From: Eutypa lata
Lineage: Eukaryota > Ascomycota > Sordariomycetes > Xylariales > Diatrypaceae
Assembly (NCBI GenBank): GCA_022661535.1
Contig: JAKULF010000001.1
Coordinates: forward strand, 4,051,809 to 4,115,808
Reading direction: 5' to 3'
DNA: 64,000 nucleotides
A model generated the notes under the pieces. It was not told where the DNA came from and searched no databases. It saw nothing but the letters and a program-made list of their open reading frames with translations. This document shows, piece by piece, positions 18,677 through 41,353 of the stretch. The first letter of the stretch is position 1, and each line of letters begins with the position of its first letter. A program made the translations under genes and the position numbers.

Positions 18677-20452
18677 TAAAGTTACCGGTGAGTCTGTGTA
18701 CCGAAAAATGGGGGTAAAGGGTATAGCAGATCTGCAAGGTAAACAGAAGTTGTGTGATTAGTGACATTTTACGTAAGTACCCGTAGTTTCTGTCACTTAT
18801 GATATGGTCTTCTTTAAACTAAACTGTGGGGGTTCAAGGGGTTCTGACATTATGAACAAATATGCAAATTGACATGAAGATTGTGATGTGCATTCACGCC
18901 TTACACTACGCTATGATATCTATACTATATATATTGTTTTTGTGTTCAAGGTACGGGCATTCATTAAGGTCTAGTGAGTTTATCTTAAAGAAAATTAGAT
19001 CACAGCACAATTACGGAGGGGGGGGTTGTAAGGTCGGGGTGGCAGCACAGGACTATAATGGTCGATACCCCCTGTCCCTCTCCCGACCCAGAACAAACTT
19101 CGATAACCCTTTCAATAAGGTACATCCCGAAGGTTCCTATTTAAAGTTAGTAAACCGGGTAGAAGTCAATATGTCCACGAGCGGCCCCTCAAATGCAACA
19201 TCCCGATCTCAATAAGATAGGTAGCATTGCAAATAAAGAAAAAGAGGGGTCATTTGCCTAGATCGTGTAGAACTTAAAGCCGGGAACTGAATTATTTTCC
19301 TGTATACGGAAGAAAATTAAGAGAGCGCTGGAGCAAAAAGAAATGTTATTAATTGATAATATCATAATAGCTATCCTCATTAGGCGGGAGTACAAAAGTA
19401 GGGCGTGGACGCTTTAGTCTAAGGCGATTACTACAGGACATCTTCCAGTGATATTATATGTTAGTTAAGTGCATCGTCTCCACATGCTTATATAATGATT
19501 ATGACTTCCTATAACGACTTATGTCTAGGGCTATGAGGGATTGACTCTAGGATACATTGTCACCTTCATTCCATTCGACGAGTAATGGGTTTAGTAGAAG
19601 CAGGGGATTATAAAAACAATTATAGAAAAGAGCAAATATAGGCCTTGCCACCTGATCACCTCCGCTGATACCAGATGCATCTACCCGGTTTCAAGCTTAA
19701 TTTTCGGAACAGGGACGCACATTCAAGGTGAGTTAGACGAGAGGATACTCTTGAGATACTTAGACGTAGTTCCCTCGGATTCTTATCACCCATCTTATCG
19801 AGGTACATCGAAACCTAGGAGTCATTGCCTTTAGGGTGAAGACCTCCCTAAACATTGCTATTATCACTGGCACGCGAACCGCTCAAAGAAAATTATACAT
19901 CTCCGAAGTTGCTAACTGGGGTGTTACTATTATGAAACGAAATCAGGATTTGAGAACTGCATGGCGGAAACGATTGGGTAATAGCTTGCGATATATAGCG
20001 CTGCAACCACGACAGCGTAGCCTTTAAGGTCCAGTGACTATAAACATCCCACCTAGTTGGTCGTGTCGCGATGGTGTGAAGCTGTCTGGCTTGCTGCAAA
20101 TGCAACCTTCTCCGCATCTCGAGATAACGACATCCTTGGTATTGGCCTCATCCTGTTGCCTACTTGACAGATATGTACGTGGCGTTCACATACAGGGTTT
20201 TGTACATTGACAGGTCAACGTTGTGGTATTAAATATGTCGTCGCGGGTGCCACACCCGGGCCAAGAAACGGTATGAACATAAGAGGCATATATAACCCAC
20301 ACCCTATGAATAAAGTTTACTTGATCTAGGTCTTAAGTGACTTCTTTCATGTTCTTCGACAGCATATGTACTCATCATTGACCTAATTTTAAGTTACAAC
20401 GTAGTTCACCACGTATCCCTCTCGGCGGCACAAATCAAAGACGTTCTACGAG
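18677..20452. other. Gene-poor intergenic
   Basis: About 1.8 kb with no supported gene. ORFs at 18862-19215 and 19836-20027 show no domain. The last few hundred bases form the promoter region of the P450 gene. Confidence 0.45.
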
Positions 20453-22134
20453 ATGGGGGGCATTCTTGCATTCCCTATCAGCTTCAGCGTTTGGCTGGCC
20501 GTACTATATGCCATCGCGCGCCTTACCCAATTCTCACTGCGCTCGCTTCCAGGGAAACACTACCCTCCAGGACCACGCTCCTTCCCATTTATCGGGAATG
20601 TGCTTCACTTTGCAAGCGATAAACCCTTCCTCCAATTTACCAAGCTAGGCAAAAAGTACGGCGAGATTGTCGGCCTCAAGGCAGGCCCTGCCAATATAGT
20701 TATCATAAACAGCGTAAATCTCGTCCGCGAGCTCCTTGAGAAACGGGGGCGCATCTACTCTGGTCGCCCTTTCGACTATATCCCCAAGGAGCATGTCGTC
20801 CGTGACTCCAAACACATCGTCTTCCTCCAGAACGATGACTATCTACGGCAATGGCGCACGGCGGTCCGCTACATCCTCGGTTCCAGTGCTGCTGAGCATG
20901 TCTTACCATTGCAGGAGGCCGCTGCCGCTGATCTGATGATGAACCTGGTGGAGAACCCAGCTAACTTTCTCGAACAGTTTCGGGTCTGGGCTCTCATTGT
21001 ACCGATGCGCACCATATGCGGCGACCGGACAGCCAGGAAGAACCGCGAGCTCCAGAATTGGTTCTTCGACGTTCAAGAAAAGTGGCTGAGCTTGCTCACT
21101 CCCGGAACAACGCCCCCTGTTGAGATCTTCCCAATCATGAAATACATGCCAGAGTCCCTCTCTGGATGGAAGCGGACCGCTAGATCCCTACGTAAGAACC
21201 AGACTGGCTTTTACTACATGATGCTTGACAAAGCGAAGAGGGAGTTTGAAGAGAACTCTGCGTCATCGGACCCGACTGCTAAAACGTACGAGTCATTAAT
21301 GGCAAAGGTTCTAAGGGAACAGCAGGATGGCAAGAAGGAGTTTGACACTGACGGGCTTGCGTATCTCGGAGGTGGATTGTTCGATGCTGCTATCGACACA
21401 ACATACTCCTCCGCTCTGACCTTCATGATGGCCTTAGCTGCGAACCCAGACATCACGAAGCGGGCCCAGGCAGAAGTCGATGCTCTACACGGCTCTGATT
21501 TTCCTCCACGAGTCGAAGATATGGGGAGTTTGCCCTATCTCAAGGCCTGCTATCTCGAGGTACGTAAAGTCTTGCCATTGCCCAAATAAATACCAACACA
21601 CTAGTGTCACCGACTCACTAATAATGATGGTGTCAGATGTTACGATGGAGACCAGTTGTTCCGACCTTGCTACCCCACCTCCTAGAGACCGACGACACCG
21701 TGGGAGGCTACCACTTGGAAAAGGGAACGGTGCTTATCCAAAACACGTGGGGCATAAACCATGACCCGGAAGTCTTCGAGAATCCGGAGGAGTTCAACCC
21801 CGACCGTTTCGTAGACAATCCCTACGGAACCAAGATGAGCGCGGACGAAGCAAGAGCTGCGGGGCGGAAGCAGACCTATATCTTTGGCGTCGGTCGCCGC
21901 AAGTGCCCCGGTGACGTCTTCGCACAGAACAGCGTCTTGTTGGCCATGGCTAAGCTTGTGTGGGGATTCAACATGATCCCAACAGCGCCGATTGATACCG
22001 ATGTAGAGACGGGCTTTCACGATGGCCTGGTGATATCGCCGGAGAATCTAAAGGTCGATTTTGTTCCACGGTCGGACGAGCATCGTTTGGCTCTTGTGAA
22101 TGATTTTCAGAGACTGACTCACTTGCTTGAGTAG
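20453..22134 (+). CDS. Cytochrome P450 monooxygenase (OrdA/CYP64-like)
   Basis: Membrane-anchored microsomal P450 of the type common in fungal secondary metabolism. Two exons (20453-21559 and 21637-22134) give 534 residues. An N-terminal anchor helix is followed by the proline-rich hinge YPPGPRSFPFIGN. The I-helix region has LFDAAIDTTYSS, the K-helix ExxR is EMLR at the exon junction, the PERF-type motif is FNPDRF, and the heme loop FGVGRRKCPG has the Cys ligand. All catalytic landmarks are intact. It lies about 3 kb from a RiPP precursor gene and is a candidate left-end member of that cluster, acting as a tailoring hydroxylase or oxidase. That link is inference from position only. Confidence 0.9.
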
Positions 22135-23687: not shown

Positions 23688-24481
23688 CTAGAAAGCAACA
23701 GCAGCTCTGCCTTTTTCCGTGATGATATCTAGGAACGTCCTGATATACCCCCTGGTGGCAGATGGATACTGCCCTTCACACATATCACAGCCGCAGATTG
23801 TTTTATTAGCGATTGCCAGCATCCCTGTCACCTCGACGATCCAGGGAAAGCTCAGGCGTATAGGTTCTTCCTCGAATGTACGGACACCAAAAATGTGGTC
23901 TGTTAGGTCTGTGGTATCTTCCAAAACGAAGATACCCTTTTGATCCAAGTCCTCAACATTGGGGTCTGCGCCTAGGAAAGCACGTATACTCGCTGAATCC
24001 AAAGCTTTGAAGTCGCGTCTTATAACGGGTTCGACGGGGCTCCTTTTGGTGGTTAAATTGACATGGAAAATCATGACGTTGAAGACATGGTAGGATAGCG
24101 TCATGTTGACAATGCGGTCCTGGCTGAAGTCTAGGACTCGCCACTCTCCCTGAGTCTTATTCTGAGGAAGTTCTATGGAGTTGTTTTACAGAGACTCCCA
24201 CGTATCGACATCAAAATTGGTGCTGAAAAAAAAAAAAGAAAAAGAAAAAAAAAGAAAAGAAAGAAATACAGCCGTAGCTACGGGGGTCCAGGGGTTCATG
24301 TCCAGCCAAAATAGCTATTTGGTAAATGGCACCTAAGAGGCATGGTCGGCGGGCACTTGCCTGAATCGCATTGAGTCGGGTATGTTAATTCAACGTTCTT
24401 CAGAGTCTCTTTGTAAAAATTTTGATCTAGGATCGAAAACGCTACTGACTCCACCTGACATGACTGATAGGTAGCATACAC
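23688..24481 (-). pseudogene. Fragment of a fungal cell-surface/transmembrane-type protein
   Basis: Two minus-strand coding stretches. One spans ~24481-24300 with several cysteines (SCQVESVAF, CDSGKCPP). The other, ~24170-23688, begins GEWRVLDFSQDRIVNMTLSY and includes SIRAFLGADPNVEDLDQKGI. The arrangement resembles extracellular parts of large fungal transmembrane hypothetical proteins, a resemblance I recall only loosely. They are separated by a homopurine tract (24226-24266), and I see no start or N-terminal domains. Probably a truncated gene; function unknown. Confidence 0.3.
24226..24266. repeat. Poly-purine (A/G) low-complexity tract
   Basis: About 40 bases of almost pure A broken by G on the plus strand; simple-sequence DNA inside the presumed intron/gap of the fragment around it. 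Confidence 0.8.
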
Positions 24482-25320
24482 GCAGTCCGAGAGCTCATCA
24501 CAAACTATGGACCTCTATAGCTGCGGATAGTCGTTCTACCTTCAACGAAGAGGAGAATAGGATGGCGTTTCACTCTAGTGTCGTTGATTCTAGCCTGGTT
24601 TAGACCGGCCGAGTAACATGTATACGCTTTCACAAACGGAAGAAAGTCCCGAAGAGATACGCCCAATATCTCACTCTTAACTGGAGCGTTCGGGCCCTTT
24701 ACAGGATACTGTTGCTACGCATTTGGGAAGCCAATTAATTATAAAGATCCGATAAGAGAATAGTTAATAGAAACTACATCAGATATTTCCCAGAAAGAGC
24801 AATATGACTAACAATACTTCCGGATGACGAAGGTGCTGCAATGGTCTTTTGCCCATGAGCTGAAAAGGAAACACTCTACATCCGACGTTAATATTTCTGA
24901 GGACAGATAGGGGTGCAGCATTGGGGAGACACGGAACGTCGTTCTAAGACTATTGCGGTTACTAGCGAACAGCTGTGGTACGAGCGACTTGCCCAGGTCC
25001 AGGCCTGGCCCATCGTTTGGAAGTTCATGCTCATGATTCCCTACATAGATAGTATAAGTGAATGGAACAGATAAAAACAGAGAGTATCTGACAGGTGGTA
25101 AGTTCTCTTTGAAACTTGCGCCGAACGAATAAGCTAGTCGATCAAATGTTTGCTAAGCTTTAAAGAGTCACGTGGATTTTAAAATACAGTGTGATAATGA
25201 AATCATAGATTCACTCATAAAACTATAAACCTAGACACAACATCCTGATGATTACTCCACGGAACGCTCACATTCCCTATATTTACTCCCCAGAGCGCTC
25301 ACACTTCCTATATGATTCCT
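24482..25320. other. Intergenic, downstream of the RiPP precursor
   Basis: No supported gene. It contains the presumed 3' end of the precursor transcript and otherwise short ORFs only. Confidence 0.45.
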
Positions 25321-25440
25321 TTAGTAGTCGGGGTAGATGACCTTTGCGTCTTCGTCAGAGCTGGAGACGGTTGCCTCGCGGCGGTAGTCGGGGTAGATAA
25401 CTTTTGCATCTTCGTCAGAGCTAGAGACGGCTGCTTCACG
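25321..25440. repeat. 2 x 60-bp tandem repeat inside the precursor gene
   Basis: The two 60-bp units (25321-25380 and 25381-25440) are in register, and the period equals 20 codons of the minus-strand precursor. Differences are mostly third-position, so this is a coding repeat rather than a minisatellite. Confidence 0.9.
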
Positions 25441-25570
25441 ACCTGAGCAGTTGGACATTAGTCAGAAGGTTACGTATGAAGGATATCAAGATTAACGTAC
25501 CGCTGATTGGAGGCGCGGGAGCGCACAGAGCGCAAGTAGCAAGGATGGCGAGAGAGAGTATGAACCGCAT
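25321..25570 (-). CDS. Candidate dikaritin-type RiPP precursor, two-repeat secreted peptide
   Basis: Small secreted precursor of 63 residues in two exons on the minus strand (25570-25501 and 25442-25321; 58-nt intron with GTACGT donor and CAG acceptor). Exon 1 encodes a signal peptide (MRFILSLAILATCALCA) and a short Pro-rich linker. Exon 2 encodes two copies of a 20-residue unit: R-E-A-(A/T)-V, SSSDEDA, K, then VIYPDY. The first copy is followed by Arg-Arg, a Kex2-type site; the second ends exactly at the stop codon, fixing the core C-terminus at Tyr. Signal peptide, acidic spacer, basic cleavage site and Tyr-containing repeated core match the plan of fungal dikaritin precursors. The two copies differ at seven of nineteen codons and six of these are synonymous, so the peptide sequence is under constraint. 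Three UstYa genes lie just upstream. The product is predicted, not shown. Confidence 0.85.
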
Positions 25571-28034: not shown

Positions 28035-28947
28035 CTACATGCCATCTGGCTCTAGATTTGGATTCGTCAACAATACCATATCGGCGTCACTGACCCTACG
28101 CGATTCTACCTTTTCCATCAGGTCCTCCCAGTCCACACAGACATGTTCGGGCGACTCCAACTTGAGCATGGGCTCTCGTCTATCCGCCGCCCAGTGGAAG
28201 GTCATTAGAGATGTGTCTGCGCGACACATCAAAGCCTGTCGGATCAGGTCCAGGCAATGATCTGGAAAGTAAAATTAGTCGGACCCGGGGAGCAAGCAAT
28301 GGCAACTCTACTGTACTCACCAATATGTAAGAGCCAGTGTGGCGTCTCCTCAGGGCCGACTTCTGGATGATAGTGGTCACGGTAGATCCACTGGCGGAGA
28401 TATTTCTGGAGCATGTTGGTGATAAACGTTCAGGTTGGGGGAGGAATAGTCGGGCAGTAGCTACTTACTACGCAATGCAACTGGTGACTCACGTCCATCC
28501 AGACCAAAGAGCCCTGCCCGTTGGGCAGCTGAACCGAACTTTGGTTCAAGGACGTAAGCTCTCTGTCAGATGCGCGGATGTTGACGTGATCGAGCAATTT
28601 AGTCCATGCTCGATCGATATCTTTGCTAGGCGGGCCTGCGTATGGGCTCTCTCCGGAGAGAACAAAACTTTGCAGGCGGAGTGCAAGAGGCTCACCGTTC
28701 AAGACTGGACAGCTCGATTAGAAAAGAAATGCAGAGAAGGTGAAGAATGCTCACTTAGTGTGTTTAGGCGTGCACTACTACTGTGCAATGGGTATGCAAA
28801 CAAGACGACTACGGTAAGGCAAACATAGAGAATGAAGAAAACTGTGTGCAAGAGTAGAGTCTGTCGGGGCCAATTCTTGTACAATGCCGCATCATCGTCG
28901 TGATGCCGCAGAAAGTGCTCGTTCTCTCCGTTGTCACTGCTGTCCAT
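28035..28947 (-). CDS. UstYa/DUF3328 family oxidase (copy 2)
   Basis: Four exons on the minus strand (28947-28755, 28704-28469, 28405-28321, 28261-28035) encode 246 residues. The N-terminus is acidic and His-rich, followed by a membrane helix (LLLHTVFFILYVCLTVVVLF). SPYAGPPSKDIDRAW is the conserved block ahead of the oxidase domain. HQLHC is at the end of exon 2, RQWIYRDHYHPE in exon 3, and HIDHCLDLIRQALMCRADTS spans the last intron. Both HxxHC motifs are complete. A C-terminal tail follows CVDWEDL. An in-frame ATG at 29001 would add 18 residues; I chose 28947 because it gives the usual short cytosolic leader. It is divergently transcribed from copy 3, about 310 bp away, which suggests co-regulation. 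Confidence 0.88.
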
Positions 28948-29258: not shown

Positions 29259-30127
29259 ATGAACTTACTTGCTTGGCTTACTCCCATACGATACGATTAC
29301 AACCTCTTGCCGGGCGACAATGACGGCAAAGGCTCGTCCACGCAGACTTCGACTACACACTCGTTCCGCGAATGGTTGGCCAAGACGGCACTGGTCTGCC
29401 TGCTTGTAATTTTCAGTTTTTTTGCGGGCAGGCTTTCGATGAGTGTGCCAAAAACTGAAGGAGCGAAGGCGTTCGGACGTGAGTCTAGCCAAGACACCTC
29501 CCTTGCCAGACCCACGGAACCCGGAGTGCTGACATAAAACTACCTTAGTCGAGACTAGAGACCAGTTGTTCCAATACAACCGTACTTTTGGAGAAGCCCC
29601 CTCCAATGCAACCGATGCTGCATGGGAGTCGTTGTTCCCTCAGCACGGTGGATTTTTCGTACATCCCAAAGTAGCACCGAACCGTTCCGCCTTTTCCGTC
29701 TTCCATCAGATGCATTGCCTGGTAGGTTTGATTTGTTCACCTAGCGCCAAGTTGCCAACAACACCGTTACACAACTGACGCTACGTAGGATGAGCTGCGG
29801 CATGGGTTCTACGTGCTCCACGAACAGGTCATAACGTACTCAGAAATGATCGACGGTCATCAAGAGAGGGATCAGAGCCACCGGGTAGAGCGGGGGAAGC
29901 AGGCACATTCGCTGGGTCACATTCGCCATTGCATCGACTTGTTACGGCAGAGCCTGATGTGTAACGCTGACCTGACAATAGAGCTGAAGAACGAGGAGTT
30001 GGGAGGAGTGACTGGATTTGGCACGGTACATCGCTGCGTCGACTGGCCGGGTCTGTTGAAATGGATCCAGCCATACGAGGGAACTGATGCTCCCCCTATC
30101 CCCCAGGAGCATGACCACACAGGCTGA
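29259..30127 (+). CDS. UstYa/DUF3328 family oxidase (copy 3)
   Basis: Three exons (29259-29478, 29549-29721, 29789-30127) encode 243 residues. A hydrophilic N-terminus of ~45 residues precedes one membrane helix (TALVCLLVIFSFFAGRLSM). The lumenal part has an APSNATDAAWESLF block, HQMHC at the end of exon 2 continuing into DELRHGFYV, then GHIRHCIDLLRQSLMCNADLT with the second HxxHC. HRCVDWPGLLKWI near the C-terminus corresponds to CVDWEDL of copy 2. Copies 2 and 3 resemble each other more than copy 1. All motif residues are intact. Expected role: oxidative cyclisation of the precursor core, probably in the secretory pathway. Confidence 0.9.
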
Positions 30128-30253
30128 GATGAAATCTTGTCCAAGCCCGTTTCACTCAATAGGTAGTGTACTTCATAGTTAGCTAGTACAGTACAGAATC
30201 AATAGGAGCAGCACATTACAAAACACTACACCCGTGTCTTATGTAAGATCAGA

Positions 30254-31693
30254 ATGGCGACATTTGACACCACGAGCGTATCCGAATTAGAACGGCTAGC
30301 TCAAGATATCGCGTCCAAAACGCAGGAGTTCATGACAGTTCTGCGCAGGAATGGCTGCGCACTGCCGTCGCATGACCCGGGCACTCCCAGGAACGATGCC
30401 CTCCCGCTGGAAGCAACTACTTTGCAAAGCACATTGATGGAGCTCACAACAGAGCTACAGACTCTTGTCCAAGGTCCAAGATTGCACGTACACAACCAGA
30501 TCCTAGCAGTAAGCAGCCCTTCCTTTGCCTGCTCTGGCAGCTGTAACGGTTGATAAAACGACGACTGACGACACTTAAAGCATGTCAACTTGGTCAATCT
30601 ACACGCCATTTACCAATTCAAACTCCCGAGCGTGGTGCCCGTGGAGGGCAGCATCAGTTACGCAGAGCTGGCCGAAAACGTGGAAGTAAGCGAGGATGTG
30701 GTTCGCCGCATTGCACGATATGCCATCACAAAGCACATTTTCCGCGAAGTCGACGGCGGCGACAGGCTCGCACACTCGGCTACGTCGAAGATGCTCGCCG
30801 AGTCGCCAATGATGATGGAATGGATTGGAATGGTCTGCGAAGAGATGTGGCCTGCCGCAACGCAGGCGGTTCCAGCCCTAGTAAAGTGGCCCAAGTCGCA
30901 AGAGCCGCAACACTCGGTAAGTTGACAAGATGCGTTGCACTTAGGGAGGTCTCGGCTCATACAGAAACTATAGGGATTTGCACTCGCGCATGACCTGCAG
31001 ACTCACGTCTTCGACATGCTTGTGGATCAGCCTGAGCGGGCGGCGCGCTTCGCCAACGCCATGGTCTACTTCAACTCTAACGCGGACCTTGCGCCGCACC
31101 ACCTGTGCGATGCCTTTGACTGGGAATCCGTTTCGCAGGTCGTCGACATCGGCGGGTCATCGGGCTCCACCGCGGTGGCTCTCGCCACACGCCTGCCGCG
31201 GGTGAGCATCATCATCCAGGATCAGGCGGTTCTAGAGGACCAGGCGCGGCAGTCGATCCCGCCGGCGCTGGCCGACCGAGTCTCCTTCATGGCACACGAC
31301 TTCTTCCAGGAGCAGCTGGTGCGCGACGCCGACGTCTACCACTTCCGCTGGATCTTCCACGACTGGCCGGACCAGTACTGCCTGAAGCTCCTGCGGGCGC
31401 TGGTACCGGCGCTGAAGCCGGGCGCCAGGGTCGTCGTGTCGGACTTTGTTGTGCCCGAGTCCGGGACGGCTTCACGGTACAAGGAGGGACTCGTGCGGGG
31501 CTTTGACCTGGCCATGATGGAACTGTTCAACGCCCGCGAGAGGGAGCGGCGGGACTGGCAGCGGTTATTTGGCGAAGCGGATTCCTCGTTCAGATTTGAA
31601 GGCGTCAAGACTGTGCCTGGCGCCGATCTAGCCTTCATTTCGGCCACCTGGCAGCCGTTAAATAGAATGTTTAAAAGAACCTTATTAAATTAA
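30254..31693 (+). CDS. SAM-dependent O-methyltransferase (Methyltransf_2 type)
   Basis: Fungal secondary-metabolism O-methyltransferase. Three exons (30254-30508, 30581-30916, 30974-31693) encode 436 residues, normal for the family. The N-terminal dimerisation/winged-helix part has ISYAELAENVEVSEDVVRRI. The SAM-binding motif I is VVDIGGSSGSTAVALA. Then come SFMAHDFFQEQ and DVYHFRWIFHDWPDQYC, the family's catalytic-His region, and GARVVVSDFVVPE. A possible in-frame stop is avoided only by the second intron. It starts 126 bp after UstYa copy 3 on the same strand. In the cluster model it would methylate a phenolic oxygen of a tyrosine or another site on the peptide; the actual acceptor is unknown. 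Confidence 0.9.
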
Positions 31694-31915: not shown

Positions 31916-32082
31916 AGCATAAAATACCTGCAGACAAGCTACGGCGGCCTGAGATCTGAGGCAGCTCGGGTGGTACGTAAGGGACATTCCGAGGTCGTTT
32001 ATTTCCAACCTGTCGTTTAATCAGACCTCCCACTCCGCAAGCACACTCAAGCTGCCATCCCTCCGACCACATTAAAGCCACT

Positions 32083-33711
32083 ATGACTGCCATGTCGCTG
32101 CTGGCGCTGCTGGCGTCTTCTTTCGCAGCTTTTGCTGCCTACCGCCTGTACGTAACCTATACACTACGACTGACGGCCCAACAGCATGGATGCCAGCCCG
32201 CAGCCCGCTACAAGCATAAGGATCCCGTATTCGGTCTGGATGTCTTCCTGCGAACCGGAGATGCCATCGCCAAGAACCAGTTCCTGGTCGAACACCAGCG
32301 GCGATACGATACATATGGCCATACGTTTGAAGCCCTGAACTTCGGTTCGCGTGCCATATCCTCTATCCACCCAGAAAACCTACGGGCAGTCTTCTCTAAA
32401 GATGCTGCAGACTGGGGCGTTCAGCCTCTACGACTACACAATATGAGCCCATTCTGCGGCACGGGATTCATCACGACCGACGGCGCTGACTGGAAGGTCT
32501 CCCACGACCTGCTCAAGCCCGGCTTTCACAGGTCCAACATTTCTGATTTCGGGTCCCTTGAAGAGCACCTGCGTATCCTACTACAACAGGTCCCAAAGGA
32601 TGGCTCTAAGTTTGATTTACAGCCATATATCTTAAGACTAGTCTGTCTTACCAATCCTCTCCGACACTCTCAACGCACTAACATATGCGCTCTAGTATCT
32701 TGATTTGAACACGCTCTTTCTGTTCGGAGAACCTATTGGGATGCTTTCAGGCACCCCTCCATCACATGCAGAGGGCTTTTTGGATGCATTCCAGGCTGGC
32801 TTTCAGGGTTGCGGAATACGCATCGCCCTGGGACCTCTGAACTTCTTGATGCCAAAGGGCGCCTGGCTCAAGGCATGCGACAAGGTTCATAAATTCGCCA
32901 ATGTGTATGTCGATAGAGCTATCGAGTACCGTAACAAAATCAACTCGGACGAACCTAGCCAAGACAAAGCAAAGCGGCGTACTCTGCTTTTCAACATGGC
33001 ACAAGCGACGGCCGATAGGACTGTTCTGCGGAACCAAGCAGTGCAGGCCATGATGGCAGCAACCGAGACAACCGCTTCTCTGGTCAGCCATGTCATCCGG
33101 AACTTGGCCAGTCACCCTACAATAGCTGCCCAAGTGCGAGCTGAAGTCCTGGCCGTGAGCGACAAGCCGCTGGATTTCGATGAGTTACCGCAGATCAAGT
33201 CCCTACAACATGTTATCACTGAGAGTATGCCTGCTAATATTTGGCTCTATACTGAACGCTATCGCTAACTTAATGACCAGCTCTTCGTCTATATCCTGTA
33301 TTTCCGCAGAATAATCGTGTTGCTTTGAAAGATACAATTTTACCTACCGGAGGAGGCTCAGATGGCACTGCTCCAGTGTTCGCGGCAGCCGGCACTCTAT
33401 TCGATACTTGCTTCGCTACGCTCCACCGCGACCCGAACATTTGGGGTCCTAATGCTAATGAGTTTTGTCCCTCCCGCTGGGAAAGCAATTTTAGCCCTCC
33501 CCCATTCACATTCATGCCATTTGGAGCTGGGCCTCGGCAGTGCTTGGCACAACAAAAGGCGACTATGGAGGTATCGTACATAGTATCACGGATATTGCAG
33601 GAGTTTAGTGACATCAAAAGCGAGGAGGAGAAGCCCTATCAGGCACAGGTAGCTCTAACGGCAAAGAGTGCTCATGGGTGTCTTGTATCGCTTATCCCAG
33701 CTACGAGATAA
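32083..33711 (+). CDS. Cytochrome P450 monooxygenase (CYP52-like)
   Basis: P450 resembling the alkane/fatty-acid omega-hydroxylase (CYP52) group. Three exons (32083-32640, 32696-33224, 33281-33711) give 505 residues. N-terminal anchor; ARYKHKDPVFGLDVF; GTGFITTDGADWKVSHDLLKPGF (a C-helix block typical of this group); FDLQPYILRLYLDLNTLFLFGE; I-helix AMMAATETTAS; K-helix ETLRLYP spanning the last intron; PTGGGSDGTAPVF; and the heme loop FGAGPRQCLAQ. The residue two after the heme Cys is Ala where Gly is usual. Intron 1 has an atypical GTCTGT donor. It follows the methyltransferase on the same strand. In the cluster model it is a tailoring enzyme, possibly acting on an aliphatic side chain (Val/Ile); that is speculation. 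Confidence 0.88.
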
Positions 33712-39221: not shown

Positions 39222-39778
39222 ATGCACCAGCAACATGGAGGCTAAGGAAAAGGTTTTGAGAGTTTGGGGTGCTTTCCCTGGTGAAAAGGGGCAAATGTTA
39301 TTCAGGTTCAGGGGGTGTGGGAATTGAATTAGAATGTTATGTTACACAAACACACAGACAAGTTCAACATCATCGGTACTGATCGGAGTGCATATTTGCA
39401 GCCGATTGTCGTTGCTTCGATCAATCAGGAGTTGGTGTTGGAGGACCCACCTGCAAGCCGAGACCGAAACTAGGCCCGGGCCGGACTGACTAGCCGGTAG
39501 CACTAAGTTGTTTAGATAGGCATGCAGGAATAAAAGTTTTTTCGTTTTTTTCGCCGTTGGAACATCTGACTCTAGAGTCAGACTTACTTGAGTTCCAACC
39601 GGTGACACAGTAATACATTCTAGAGAAGGTCCCAATCGTTACTGGGCCACCCAGTATCTTTCATCTGAAGAGTGGGATTAGAACCATTCTTTTTGGTACA
39701 AAATAATATCATTATTAAATTTTTTCCTTTCATATAGTGCACAGTGTATAGGTACACATCACAATTCTCACAAGCAAA
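39222..39778. other. Intergenic
   Basis: MATE promoter region; no gene seen. Confidence 0.45.
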
Positions 39779-41353
39779 ATGGGGTCTCACGGTGCTCCCC
39801 ACGAGCCAGGATGGGGCAGCTTGTCCGCTACAGCCGCTACGGAGACTTCACCGCTACTGCGCTATATCGAGCCGGAACCGGAACCGGAGCAGGATCTCGA
39901 CTTAGAGCCATCAAAGTCTCACATCATCACCAACCAAGTCACAGATGATGATGATGACGACGACGATGACGGTGGGGATAACGACAATTGGTGGTCAGAA
40001 CTCCGCCTCCTAGCCCGGTACTCCCTCCCCCTCATCGCCACCTACCTGCTCCAATACTCACACAGCGTAATCACGACCTTCGTGGCGGGGCACCTCGACG
40101 CCGACGCCCTCGCCGCGGCCAGTGTGGGCATGACCACGATGAACATCGTGGGGTACGCGACGATCGAGGGCATGGCGACGGCCCTCGACACCCTGTGCGC
40201 GCAGGCCTACGGGTCGGGCAACCAGCACGGCGTCGGGCTGCACGTGCAGCGCATGCTCGTGTTCATGGCCCTGTGCTGCGTCCCCATCGCGGCCGTGTGG
40301 CTGTTCTCCCCGCAGATCCTCGGCCTCTTCATACGGCAGCAGCACCTGGCGGCCATGGCGGGGGCCTTCCTGCGCTGGAGCATCGTCGGGCTCCCGGGCT
40401 ACGCCGCCTTCGAGGCCCTCAAGCGCTTCCTGCAGGCGCAGGGCGACTTCCGCGCCGCGGTCTTCGTCCTCGTCGTCTGCACGCCCGCCAACATCGCCCT
40501 CAGCTGGCTCTTCGCCTTCAGCCTGGACATGGGGCTCGAGGGCGCGGCGCTCGGCGCCGCCCTGACCAACGACCTGCGCCCGGTCCTGCTCCTGCTGTAC
40601 CTGGTCGTGGTGCCGGCGGGCCGCCGGTCCGTCGCCCGCGGATGGGGCGGTTTCGCGTCGCGCGGGGCCCTCTTCTCGTCGTCCTCCTGGGGCCCGATGG
40701 TGCGCCTCTCGGTCGCCGGGTCGGCCGTCAACCTCGGCGAGTGGGCCGCCTTCGAGATCGTCGCCTTCAGCACCTCGTACCTGAGCACGCGCCACCTCGC
40801 CGCCCAGTCCGTGCTCACGACGGCGTCCATCGTCGCCTGGCACGTGCCCTTCAGTGTCAGCGTGGCGGCGAGCACGCGCGTGGGCCACCTTGTCGGCGCG
40901 GGCCGGCTCGCCACCGCGCGCCGCGCCTCCGCCCTGTACGCCGTCGTGTTCCTCGTCGTGGGCTGCGTGGACGGGGCCGCGATCTACGCGCTTCGGAACA
41001 CGCTCGCGAGCTTCTTCTCCGATGACGACGTCGTCAGGAGCATTGCTGTCGCGGCTACGCTGGCCGTTGCCGTGTTCCAGGTCATCGATGCCGTTATCTG
41101 CGGCACGAATGGGGTTTTGCGCGGGCTCGGGAGACAGGGCGTTGCGGCCTGGGTTGTGTTCGCCGTCAATTACCTCGCTGCGGTGCCCCTCGCTATATGG
41201 CTTGAGTTGGGCCCGCCAGGGTGGGGGCTGAATGGTGTTTGGATTGGTATTGGGAGTGGGATGGTGCTTATTGCTGTTATCGAGTGTGTTTATATGAAAG
41301 CGCTGCGGTGGCAGGATTGCGTTGATGTGGTGAAGTTGAGAGAGGGGCTGTAA
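39779..41353 (+). CDS. MATE family multidrug/metabolite exporter
   Basis: Intronless gene of 524 residues. A cytosolic N-terminus of ~75 residues includes a run of aspartates (residues ~57-67), followed by two six-helix MATE halves. Half one: LLARYSLPLIATYLLQYSHSV, GHLDADALAAASVG, and the family-typical GMATALDTLCAQAYGSG, which identifies the eukaryotic MATE subgroup. Half two: RLSVAGSAVNLGEWAAFEIV, HVPFSVSVAASTRVGHLVGAG, and VICGTNGVLRGLGRQ. MATE proteins extrude organic cations or metabolites in exchange for H+ or Na+. The coding sequence is strongly GC-rich compared with its flanks. Its place between the UstYa/methyltransferase/P450 group and an FAD oxidase makes it a candidate exporter for the cluster product; other functions are possible. 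Confidence 0.92.
   Translation: MGSHGAPHEPGWGSLSATAATETSPLLRYIEPEPEPEQDLDLEPSKSHIITNQVTDDDDDDDDDGGDNDNWWSELRLLARYSLPLIATYLLQYSHSVITTFVAGHLDADALAAASVGMTTMNIVGYATIEGMATALDTLCAQAYGSGNQHGVGLHVQRMLVFMALCCVPIAAVWLFSPQILGLFIRQQHLAAMAGAFLRWSIVGLPGYAAFEALKRFLQAQGDFRAAVFVLVVCTPANIALSWLFAFSLDMGLEGAALGAALTNDLRPVLLLLYLVVVPAGRRSVARGWGGFASRGALFSSSSWGPMVRLSVAGSAVNLGEWAAFEIVAFSTSYLSTRHLAAQSVLTTASIVAWHVPFSVSVAASTRVGHLVGAGRLATARRASALYAVVFLVVGCVDGAAIYALRNTLASFFSDDDVVRSIAVAATLAVAVFQVIDAVICGTNGVLRGLGRQGVAAWVVFAVNYLAAVPLAIWLELGPPGWGLNGVWIGIGSGMVLIAVIECVYMKALRWQDCVDVVKLREGL

What the first reader, a model, noticed from the sequence alone, without database searches (positions are those of the whole stretch)
25321..25570. 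Previously unseen two-repeat RiPP precursor with core VIYPDY
Seen: signal peptide, one intron, then two 20-residue units each ending K-VIYPDY, the first followed by RR and the second by the stop codon. Known: dikaritin precursors (ustiloxin, phomopsin, asperipin, epichloecyclin types) are secreted repeat proteins cut at basic sites next to a Tyr-containing core, and their genes lie beside UstYa genes. Inference: the gene makes a cyclic hexapeptide (or slightly longer) whose core order is new to me. Genome annotation would probably miss it, because it is 63 codons with an intron.
Basis: partly seen in the sequence, partly recalled or inferred. Interest (0 to 1): 0.96.

Follow-up and report, generated by a model that had tools for sequence, protein, structure and literature searches.

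The report
VIYPDY precursor of a fungal dikaritin
A fungus, most likely Eutypa lata, carries a tiny gene with a predicted intron that encodes the peptide VIYPDY twice beside three UstYa-family genes, and related fungi keep the same peptide almost unchanged, so the gene is predicted to make an apparently undescribed cross-linked cyclic peptide.

Summary
Minus strand 25570-25501 + 25442-25321 (58-nt intron) encodes 63 residues: a signal-like start, then two 20-residue units ending K-VIYPDY, the first followed by RR, the second by the stop. A search of 5.8 billion proteins returned nine relatives besides the window's own ORF, in Xylaria, Nemania, Annulohypoxylon, Trichothecium and unnamed sources, with 2-3 units; five named models share the splice. 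Conservation centres on D-x-D-x-K-VIYPDY-RR; spacers vary. Three UstYa genes, each with two HxxHC motifs, begin 1.2 kb away, followed by an O-methyltransferase. UstYa A and O-methyltransferase relatives share a contig length in 8 of 10 shared species; the precursor shares one with UstYa A in Nemania FL0916 and with the O-methyltransferase in Xylaria castorea, but with neither in X. cubensis. Best reading: a dikaritin-type RiPP cluster without tyrosinase, its cores likely freed by Kex2 and cross-linked at tyrosine. Product, ring, methylation and activity are untested.

The parts
25501..25570 (-). Precursor exon 1: signal-peptide-like MRFILSLAILATCALCAPAPPIS plus first base of codon 24
   Evidence: same start and same intron position in relatives. 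Signal peptide judged by eye, no predictor run
25443..25500 (-). 58-nt predicted intron (GTACGT...CTGAC...CTCAG)
   Evidence: spliced form matches annotated relatives
25321..25442 (-). Precursor exon 2 with both repeat units and stop codon
25402..25416 (-). DEDAK block before core 1 (recognition element or extra core residues)
   Evidence: both Asp and Lys invariant in alignment A1
25384..25401 (-). Core 1 VIYPDY
   Evidence: conserved in relatives
25378..25383 (-). RR, predicted Kex2 site between the units
   Evidence: RR follows 15 of 15 internal units in ten proteins
25342..25356 (-). DEDAK block before core 2
25324..25341 (-). Core 2 VIYPDY, directly before the stop codon
26728..27726 (-). 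UstYa A (288 aa; exons 27726-27522, 27449-27214, 27153-26728); motifs HSLHC and HLVHC
   Evidence: Pfam PF11807 E 2.9e-23; relatives support both introns
28035..28947 (-). UstYa B (246 aa; exons 28947-28755, 28704-28469, 28405-28321, 28261-28035); motifs HQLHC and HIDHC
   Evidence: PF11807 E 1.1e-43; run together with A in public Seiridium models P0022-P0024
29259..30127 (+). UstYa C (243 aa; exons 29259-29478, 29549-29721, 29789-30127); motifs HQMHC and HIRHC
   Evidence: PF11807 E 1.7e-23 over residues 122-224; intron choices are my model; the start agrees with public models P0047 and P0048
30254..31693 (+). O-methyltransferase, Methyltransf_2 (436 aa; exons 30254-30508, 30581-30916, 30974-31693)
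31981..33711 (+). Cytochrome P450 in several exons; cluster membership not tested
   Evidence: PF00067 on two open frames; frames

Best explanation
This is most likely the precursor gene of a dikaritin-type RiPP: it encodes two VIYPDY units beside three UstYa genes and an O-methyltransferase, and the protein is predicted to enter the secretory pathway, be cut by Kex2 after RR, and have its tyrosine-containing cores likely cross-linked by the UstYa enzymes. Steps: (1) shown: open frame with a signal-like start, two units and one internal RR (splice predicted, agreeing with relatives), and a D-x-D-x-K-VIYPDY block conserved in relatives. (2) inferred from ustiloxin and asperipin: Kex2 cuts after RR and a carboxypeptidase trims RR, leaving Tyr at the C terminus of each unit. 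(3) inferred: the acidic stretch is the recognition element, like the ED motif flanking each YAIG core of UstA, and Lys marks the N-terminal cut that frees VIYPDY. (4) inferred: the UstYa proteins, each with two HxxHC motifs (a dicopper centre in the characterised relative CctR), use O2 to join a Tyr phenol oxygen to a beta-carbon (of Ile, Val or the other Tyr) and/or to desaturate residues; no tyrosinase match is on this contig, so an asperipin-like route without tyrosinase is favoured. (5) inferred, weakest: the linked O-methyltransferase methylates a remaining Tyr hydroxyl or a carboxylate. The near-invariant core suggests one conserved target.
For: Gene structure and repeats. Nine relatives outside the window with the same block and RR. 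Synonymous bias between units. Three UstYa genes with six HxxHC motifs, 1.2 to 4.6 kb from the precursor. Linkage by equal contig length: precursor with UstYa A in Nemania sp. FL0916 (22,649; tags 572908 and 572912), precursor with O-methyltransferase in Xylaria castorea (64,308), UstYa A with O-methyltransferase in 8 of 10 species found in both lists. Seiridium models joining B to A, and six models joining UstYa C to the O-methyltransferase, show adjacency. Literature passages: UstA cores flanked by ED and KR, AprY essential for asperipin-2a (PMC6514808); HxxHC dicopper centre (PMC12435403).
Against: In Xylaria cubensis the precursor (contig 37,539) is on another contig than UstYa A and the O-methyltransferase (144,459); in Nemania FL0916 the O-methyltransferase is apart from precursor and UstYa A, and in Bimuria apart from UstYa A. 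Assembly breaks could explain all of these, but that is not shown. Trichothecium roseum has a precursor-like protein with altered cores (FIYPDY, VIYPDS) and no UstYa A or O-methyltransferase relative under that name in the lists; Annulohypoxylon stygium and A. maeteangense likewise show no partner under those names, though clustering at 90% could hide one. Most species with UstYa A gave no precursor entry. No transcript, product or enzyme test exists here. UstYa proteins also serve non-RiPP pathways (PMC12048977 passage). There is no dibasic site before VIYPDY, only a single Lys.
Confidence: 0.83

Rival explanations
1. The gene is a Kex2-processed signalling peptide (pheromone- or hormone-like) that is secreted unmodified; the near-invariant sequence reflects receptor binding, and the UstYa genes next door serve something else.
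For: A core kept across genera is what one expects of a signal (recalled reasoning, no call). Trichothecium carries a precursor-like protein without UstYa A in the lists. Only 22% of KEP genes have DUF3328 neighbours (PMC7329392 abstract).
Against: Almost all mating-factor and pheromone KEPs lack DUF3328 neighbours, with three exceptions (PMC7329392 abstract). The core has two tyrosines.
Confidence: 0.08
2. The pathway is as described but the mature core is longer (K-VIYPDY or the whole DxDxK-VIYPDY 11-mer), not a hexapeptide. This overlaps with the best explanation rather than excluding it.
For: Conservation does not step down at K|V: both Asp and Lys are invariant in alignment A1, and the Asp positions, not imposed by my search pattern, are 25 of 25. 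There is no dibasic site before VIYPDY.
Against: UstA also carries a conserved acidic motif outside its core (PMC6514808 passage); the positions in between (A/S/T and E/G/Q/N) vary.
Confidence: 0.3
3. UstYa genes and O-methyltransferase belong to a non-RiPP pathway and the repeat gene sits there by accident.
For: UstYa proteins occur in polyketide and NRPS clusters (PMC12048977 passage); P450 genes lie on both sides.
Against: No NRPS or PKS domain was found in the 20 queries that I scanned with Pfam; these are not all frames of the window. The precursor shares a contig length with UstYa A or the O-methyltransferase in two further species.
Confidence: 0.05
4. The gene is a relic: the family is decaying and this two-unit form makes nothing.
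For: Only two units; the Trichothecium copy has altered cores.
Against: Synonymous bias between units, intact frame, UstYa motifs present; two units with unchanged cores also in X. castorea and A. maeteangense.
Confidence: 0.03

Closest known systems
Asperipin-2a (aprA/aprY, Aspergillus flavus)
   Same: Hexapeptide core, UstYa-type cyclase, no tyrosinase among its four genes (PMC6514808 passage). That its last Tyr directly precedes the Kex2 site is recalled, from no call
   Different: Core FYYTGY; one UstYa gene, a reductase and a transporter, no O-methyltransferase. Here core VIYPDY, three UstYa genes, O-methyltransferase
Ustiloxin B (ustA)
   Same: Repeat precursor with signal peptide, conserved ED and KR motifs flanking each core, UstYa pair
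   Different: 16 YAIG cores; needs tyrosinase UstQ; N-methyltransferase. Here 2 cores, and none of 25 tyrosinase matches is on the contig
Phomopsin A (phomA)
   Same: Repeat precursor with five UstYa genes (PMC7329392 passage); antiSMASH query YVIPID has V, I, Y, P and D in another order (PMC7099791 passage)
   Different: Tyr and Ile of YVIP are joined and a tyrosinase is needed; the precursors were not aligned here
Epichloecyclins (gigA)
   Same: Repeat precursor; a review passage puts Ile N-terminal and Tyr internal to the core (PMC9233826)
   Different: Four repeats, cyclic nonapeptides; sequence not compared here
Lichen RiPP clan R1
   Same: O-methyltransferase lying between two UstYa-type genes (PMC12048977 passages)
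   Different: Has a tyrosinase and an FGE-sulfatase, and no repeat precursor was found there

Membership tests
Dikaritins (KEP precursor + UstYa) | Precursor with N-terminal ER signal peptide | tested here: inconclusive
   MRFILSLAILATCALCA fits by eye and is kept in the full-length relatives; no signal-peptide predictor was available
Dikaritins (KEP precursor + UstYa) | Tandem cores separated by Kex2 dibasic sites | tested here: met
   Two units with RR between them; RR after 15 of 15 internal units in ten proteins. One site only in the window's protein
Dikaritins (KEP precursor + UstYa) | Tyrosine (or other aromatic) in the core | tested here: met
   VIYPDY; first Tyr invariant, last Tyr 24 of 25 units
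Dikaritins (KEP precursor + UstYa) | Adjacent UstYa/DUF3328 genes with two HxxHC motifs (class-defining enzyme) | tested here: met
   Three genes, six motifs
Dikaritins (KEP precursor + UstYa) | Cross-linked product | not testable with these tools
   needs LC-MS and NMR
Ding-type dikaritin BGC (five-gene definition, as told in PMC12048977) | Tyrosinase in the cluster | tested here: not met
   25 PF00264 matches listed in the genome, none on contig C6 (the tool calls its counts lower bounds)
Ding-type dikaritin BGC (five-gene definition, as told in PMC12048977) | Methyltransferase | tested here: met
   Methyltransf_2 O-methyltransferase; the ustiloxin one is an N-methyltransferase (passage)
Ding-type dikaritin BGC (five-gene definition, as told in PMC12048977) | Transporter or peptidase | tested here: inconclusive
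   A MatE transporter gene lies at 39752-41353, 8 kb beyond the O-methyltransferase; linkage elsewhere and peptidases were not tested
Fungal mating pheromone precursors | No DUF3328 gene nearby (three exceptions known) | tested here: not met
   three UstYa genes within 5 kb; rule from PMC7329392 abstract

The most novel reading that the evidence does not exclude
VIYPDY is the founding core of an undescribed, O-methylated, tyrosine-cross-linked dikaritin made by a tyrosinase-free cluster of three dicopper UstYa enzymes plus an O-methyltransferase; the core is held almost invariant across Xylariales and recognisable in Hypocreales, pointing to a single old target, and two-repeat precursors of this kind were excluded by definition from the 1,461-genome survey of such proteins.
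Probability: 0.5. Interest if true: 0.72.

Novelty: new member of a known kind. Interest (0 to 1): 0.58.

Why it matters
PMC10512285 (passage) counted only five reported dikaritins in 2022 against at least 838 types of repeat precursor. This family adds a defined core, a recurring gene set, exact masses to look for and relatives in several genera to work in. The core barely varies across genera, so what a dikaritin is for becomes a testable question; this is not unique, since nearly all of 441 ustiloxin-type repeats keep Tyr and Ile (PMC7329392 passage). It also places an O-methyltransferase in a dikaritin-type cluster; a 2025 paper says such enzymes had never been reported in dikaritin clusters before its own lichen example (PMC12048977 passages). 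The Umemura survey required at least three repeats (PMC7329392 section 13), so this two-repeat form could not be in it; three-repeat relatives could.

Tried and rejected
Rejected: VIYPDY as a chance repeat (synonymous bias, relatives). Rejected: a genome-wide repeat family; one match only. Rejected as probably not real: a UstYa C-O-methyltransferase fusion in six public models (P0047, P0048, P0050, P0051, P0053, P0054); they lack the exon with the first HxxHC motif and join at different points (P0054 judged from the alignment only), other species have the enzyme alone, and in the window a stop codon separates the genes. Led nowhere: solved structures for UstYa A (best E 0.23); NCBIfam for the precursor (0 families); literature for VIYPDY, YPDYKR, IYPDY, VIYPD (one irrelevant paper); isodityrosine RiPPs; Eutypa RiPPs (the Diatrypaceae review PMC11376284 has 0 RiPP mentions in its main text). 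PMC8403587 reports a ustiloxin-like RiPP cluster in all Hypomontagnella species, Hypoxylon rubiginosum and H. pulicicidum (passage); whether that is this family I could not tell. Library limits: openly licensed main texts only, no supplements.

Counting notes: P0008 (the window's own unspliced ORF) was left out of alignment and unit counts. My unit pattern imposed K, Y, P, D and limited choices at V, I and the last Y; invariance rests on alignment A1. P0001, P0002 and P0005 are close relatives, so units are not independent. Contig linkage is inferred from equal lengths in the tables, not from reading the contigs; the table was typed and leaves out unnamed rows and the more distant named rows, none of which adds a shared species. 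The protein database is clustered at 90%, so partners can be hidden. In one search the joined precursor exons carried one base too many at the 3' end, mended (coordinates only).

Full report
What is there. The minus strand carries ATG at 25570, exon 1 to 25501, a predicted 58-nt intron (GTACGT, CTGAC, CTCAG) and exon 2 from 25442 to the stop codon at 25323-25321. The protein is 63 residues: a hydrophobic signal-like start, then GREAAVSSSDEDAK-VIYPDY and RREATVSSSDEDAK-VIYPDY.

More than chance. The two units differ at 9 bases and 8 codons; 6 of the 8 codon changes are synonymous, and random substitution gave as few amino-acid changes in 0.27% of 20,000 simulations. The two-unit stretch has one match in the genome. 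The DNA pattern for VIYPDY by itself is not informative: 3 matches against 2 for its reversed control. A search of about 5.8 billion proteins returned 10 proteins, that is all 10 candidates, each at E 1e-7 or better; one (P0008) is the window's own unspliced reading. The other nine include Xylaria cubensis, X. castorea, Annulohypoxylon stygium, A. maeteangense, Nemania sp. FL0916 and Trichothecium roseum, named hypothetical or uncharacterized protein, and three unnamed rows.

What is conserved. In ten proteins (window plus nine) there are 25 units. Alignment A1 marks as invariant M1 and R2; in unit 1 V29, both Asp of DxD, Lys, I, Y, P, D, Y and RR; in unit 2 both Asp, Lys, Y, P, D. The Asp positions are 25 of 25, the last Tyr 24 of 25, Ile 24 of 25, Val 23 of 25; residues before the acidic block vary and the spacer changes length (the search pattern itself required K, Y, P, D). 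RR follows all 15 internal units, and the other 10 units end their proteins. So the conserved element is D-x-D-x-K-VIYPDY-RR, 11 residues plus the cut site, not only six.

Organism. The neighbouring O-methyltransferase is 99% identical over 97% of its length to proteins of two Eutypa lata records, so the window is most likely Eutypa lata, Diatrypaceae, Xylariales. No full-length precursor under that name turned up.

Neighbours. UstYa A (27726-26728, minus), UstYa B (28947-28035, minus) and UstYa C (29259-30127, plus) match PF11807 and each has two HxxHC motifs; they make up 4 of 42 matches in the genome. An O-methyltransferase (30254-31693, plus) and a P450 (about 31981-33711, plus) follow. 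Another P450 lies at 20405-22134 (the Pfam match is to 20405-21589). Of 25 tyrosinase matches listed in the genome none is on this contig.

Do they travel together? UstYa A gave 35 relatives at E 0.001 or better among 625 candidates, the O-methyltransferase 72 at E 1e-30 or better out of 7,996 scored candidates. Precursor and UstYa A: same in Nemania FL0916 (22,649; tags 572908 and 572912), different in X. cubensis (1 of 2). Precursor and O-methyltransferase: same in X. castorea (64,308), different in Nemania FL0916 and X. cubensis (1 of 3). Public Seiridium models run UstYa B into A, and six public models run UstYa C into the O-methyltransferase, which shows adjacency. Against: Trichothecium roseum (Hypocreales) has a precursor-like protein with altered cores and neither partner under its name in the lists, and most species with UstYa A gave no precursor entry.

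How it most likely works. Shown: open frame, conservation, neighbours and their motifs. Inferred by analogy with ustiloxin and asperipin (PMC6514808 passages): secretion, Kex2 cutting at RR, trimming, N-terminal release near Lys, and UstYa-catalysed cross-linking at Tyr. HxxHC motifs form a binuclear copper centre that uses O2 in the UstYa relative CctR (PMC12435403 abstract and passages), and the family makes the Tyr-O to beta-carbon bond of asperipin-2a (PMC12186524 passage). Absence of a tyrosinase favours an asperipin-like rather than ustiloxin-like route. O-methylation is the weakest step.

Comparison. By the class-defining criteria (repeat precursor plus UstYa) it belongs with the dikaritins, with the cross-linked product untested; it fails the older five-gene definition on tyrosinase. 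Nothing in the listings of ten literature searches described this core; supplements and most subscription papers were not searchable. Papers were seen as listings, abstracts and passages only, except the outline, section 6 part 1 and section 13 of PMC7329392.

Verdict. A real, conserved, apparently uncharacterised RiPP precursor family: a new member of a known kind, with a nearly invariant core, an O-methyltransferase partner, and a two-repeat form that the three-repeat survey excludes.

Noticed in passing
25252-25313: Two copies of a 31-nt tandem repeat (83% matching) lie just downstream of the precursor stop codon, possibly in its 3' UTR.
   Followed up: partly
29259-31693: Six public gene models (P0047, P0048, P0050, P0051, P0053, P0054) fuse UstYa C with the O-methyltransferase and lack the exon holding the first HxxHC motif; likely a shared annotation error, but alternative splicing is not excluded.
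   Followed up: partly
L010 (C6:2187386-2200646 of the own genome): Another UstYa-rich stretch on the same contig with six PF11807 matches in about 13 kb; similar groups on C2 (4307321-4313581) and C14 (2716191-2717279). Their precursors were not looked for.
   Followed up: no
23688-24185: 165-residue open frame on the minus strand without Pfam match, between the left P450 and the precursor.
   Followed up: no
P0009 (Trichothecium roseum N3K66_000879): A Hypocreales relative with cores FIYPDY and VIYPDS and no UstYa A or O-methyltransferase relative under its name in the lists; may be a relic or a horizontally acquired copy.
   Followed up: no
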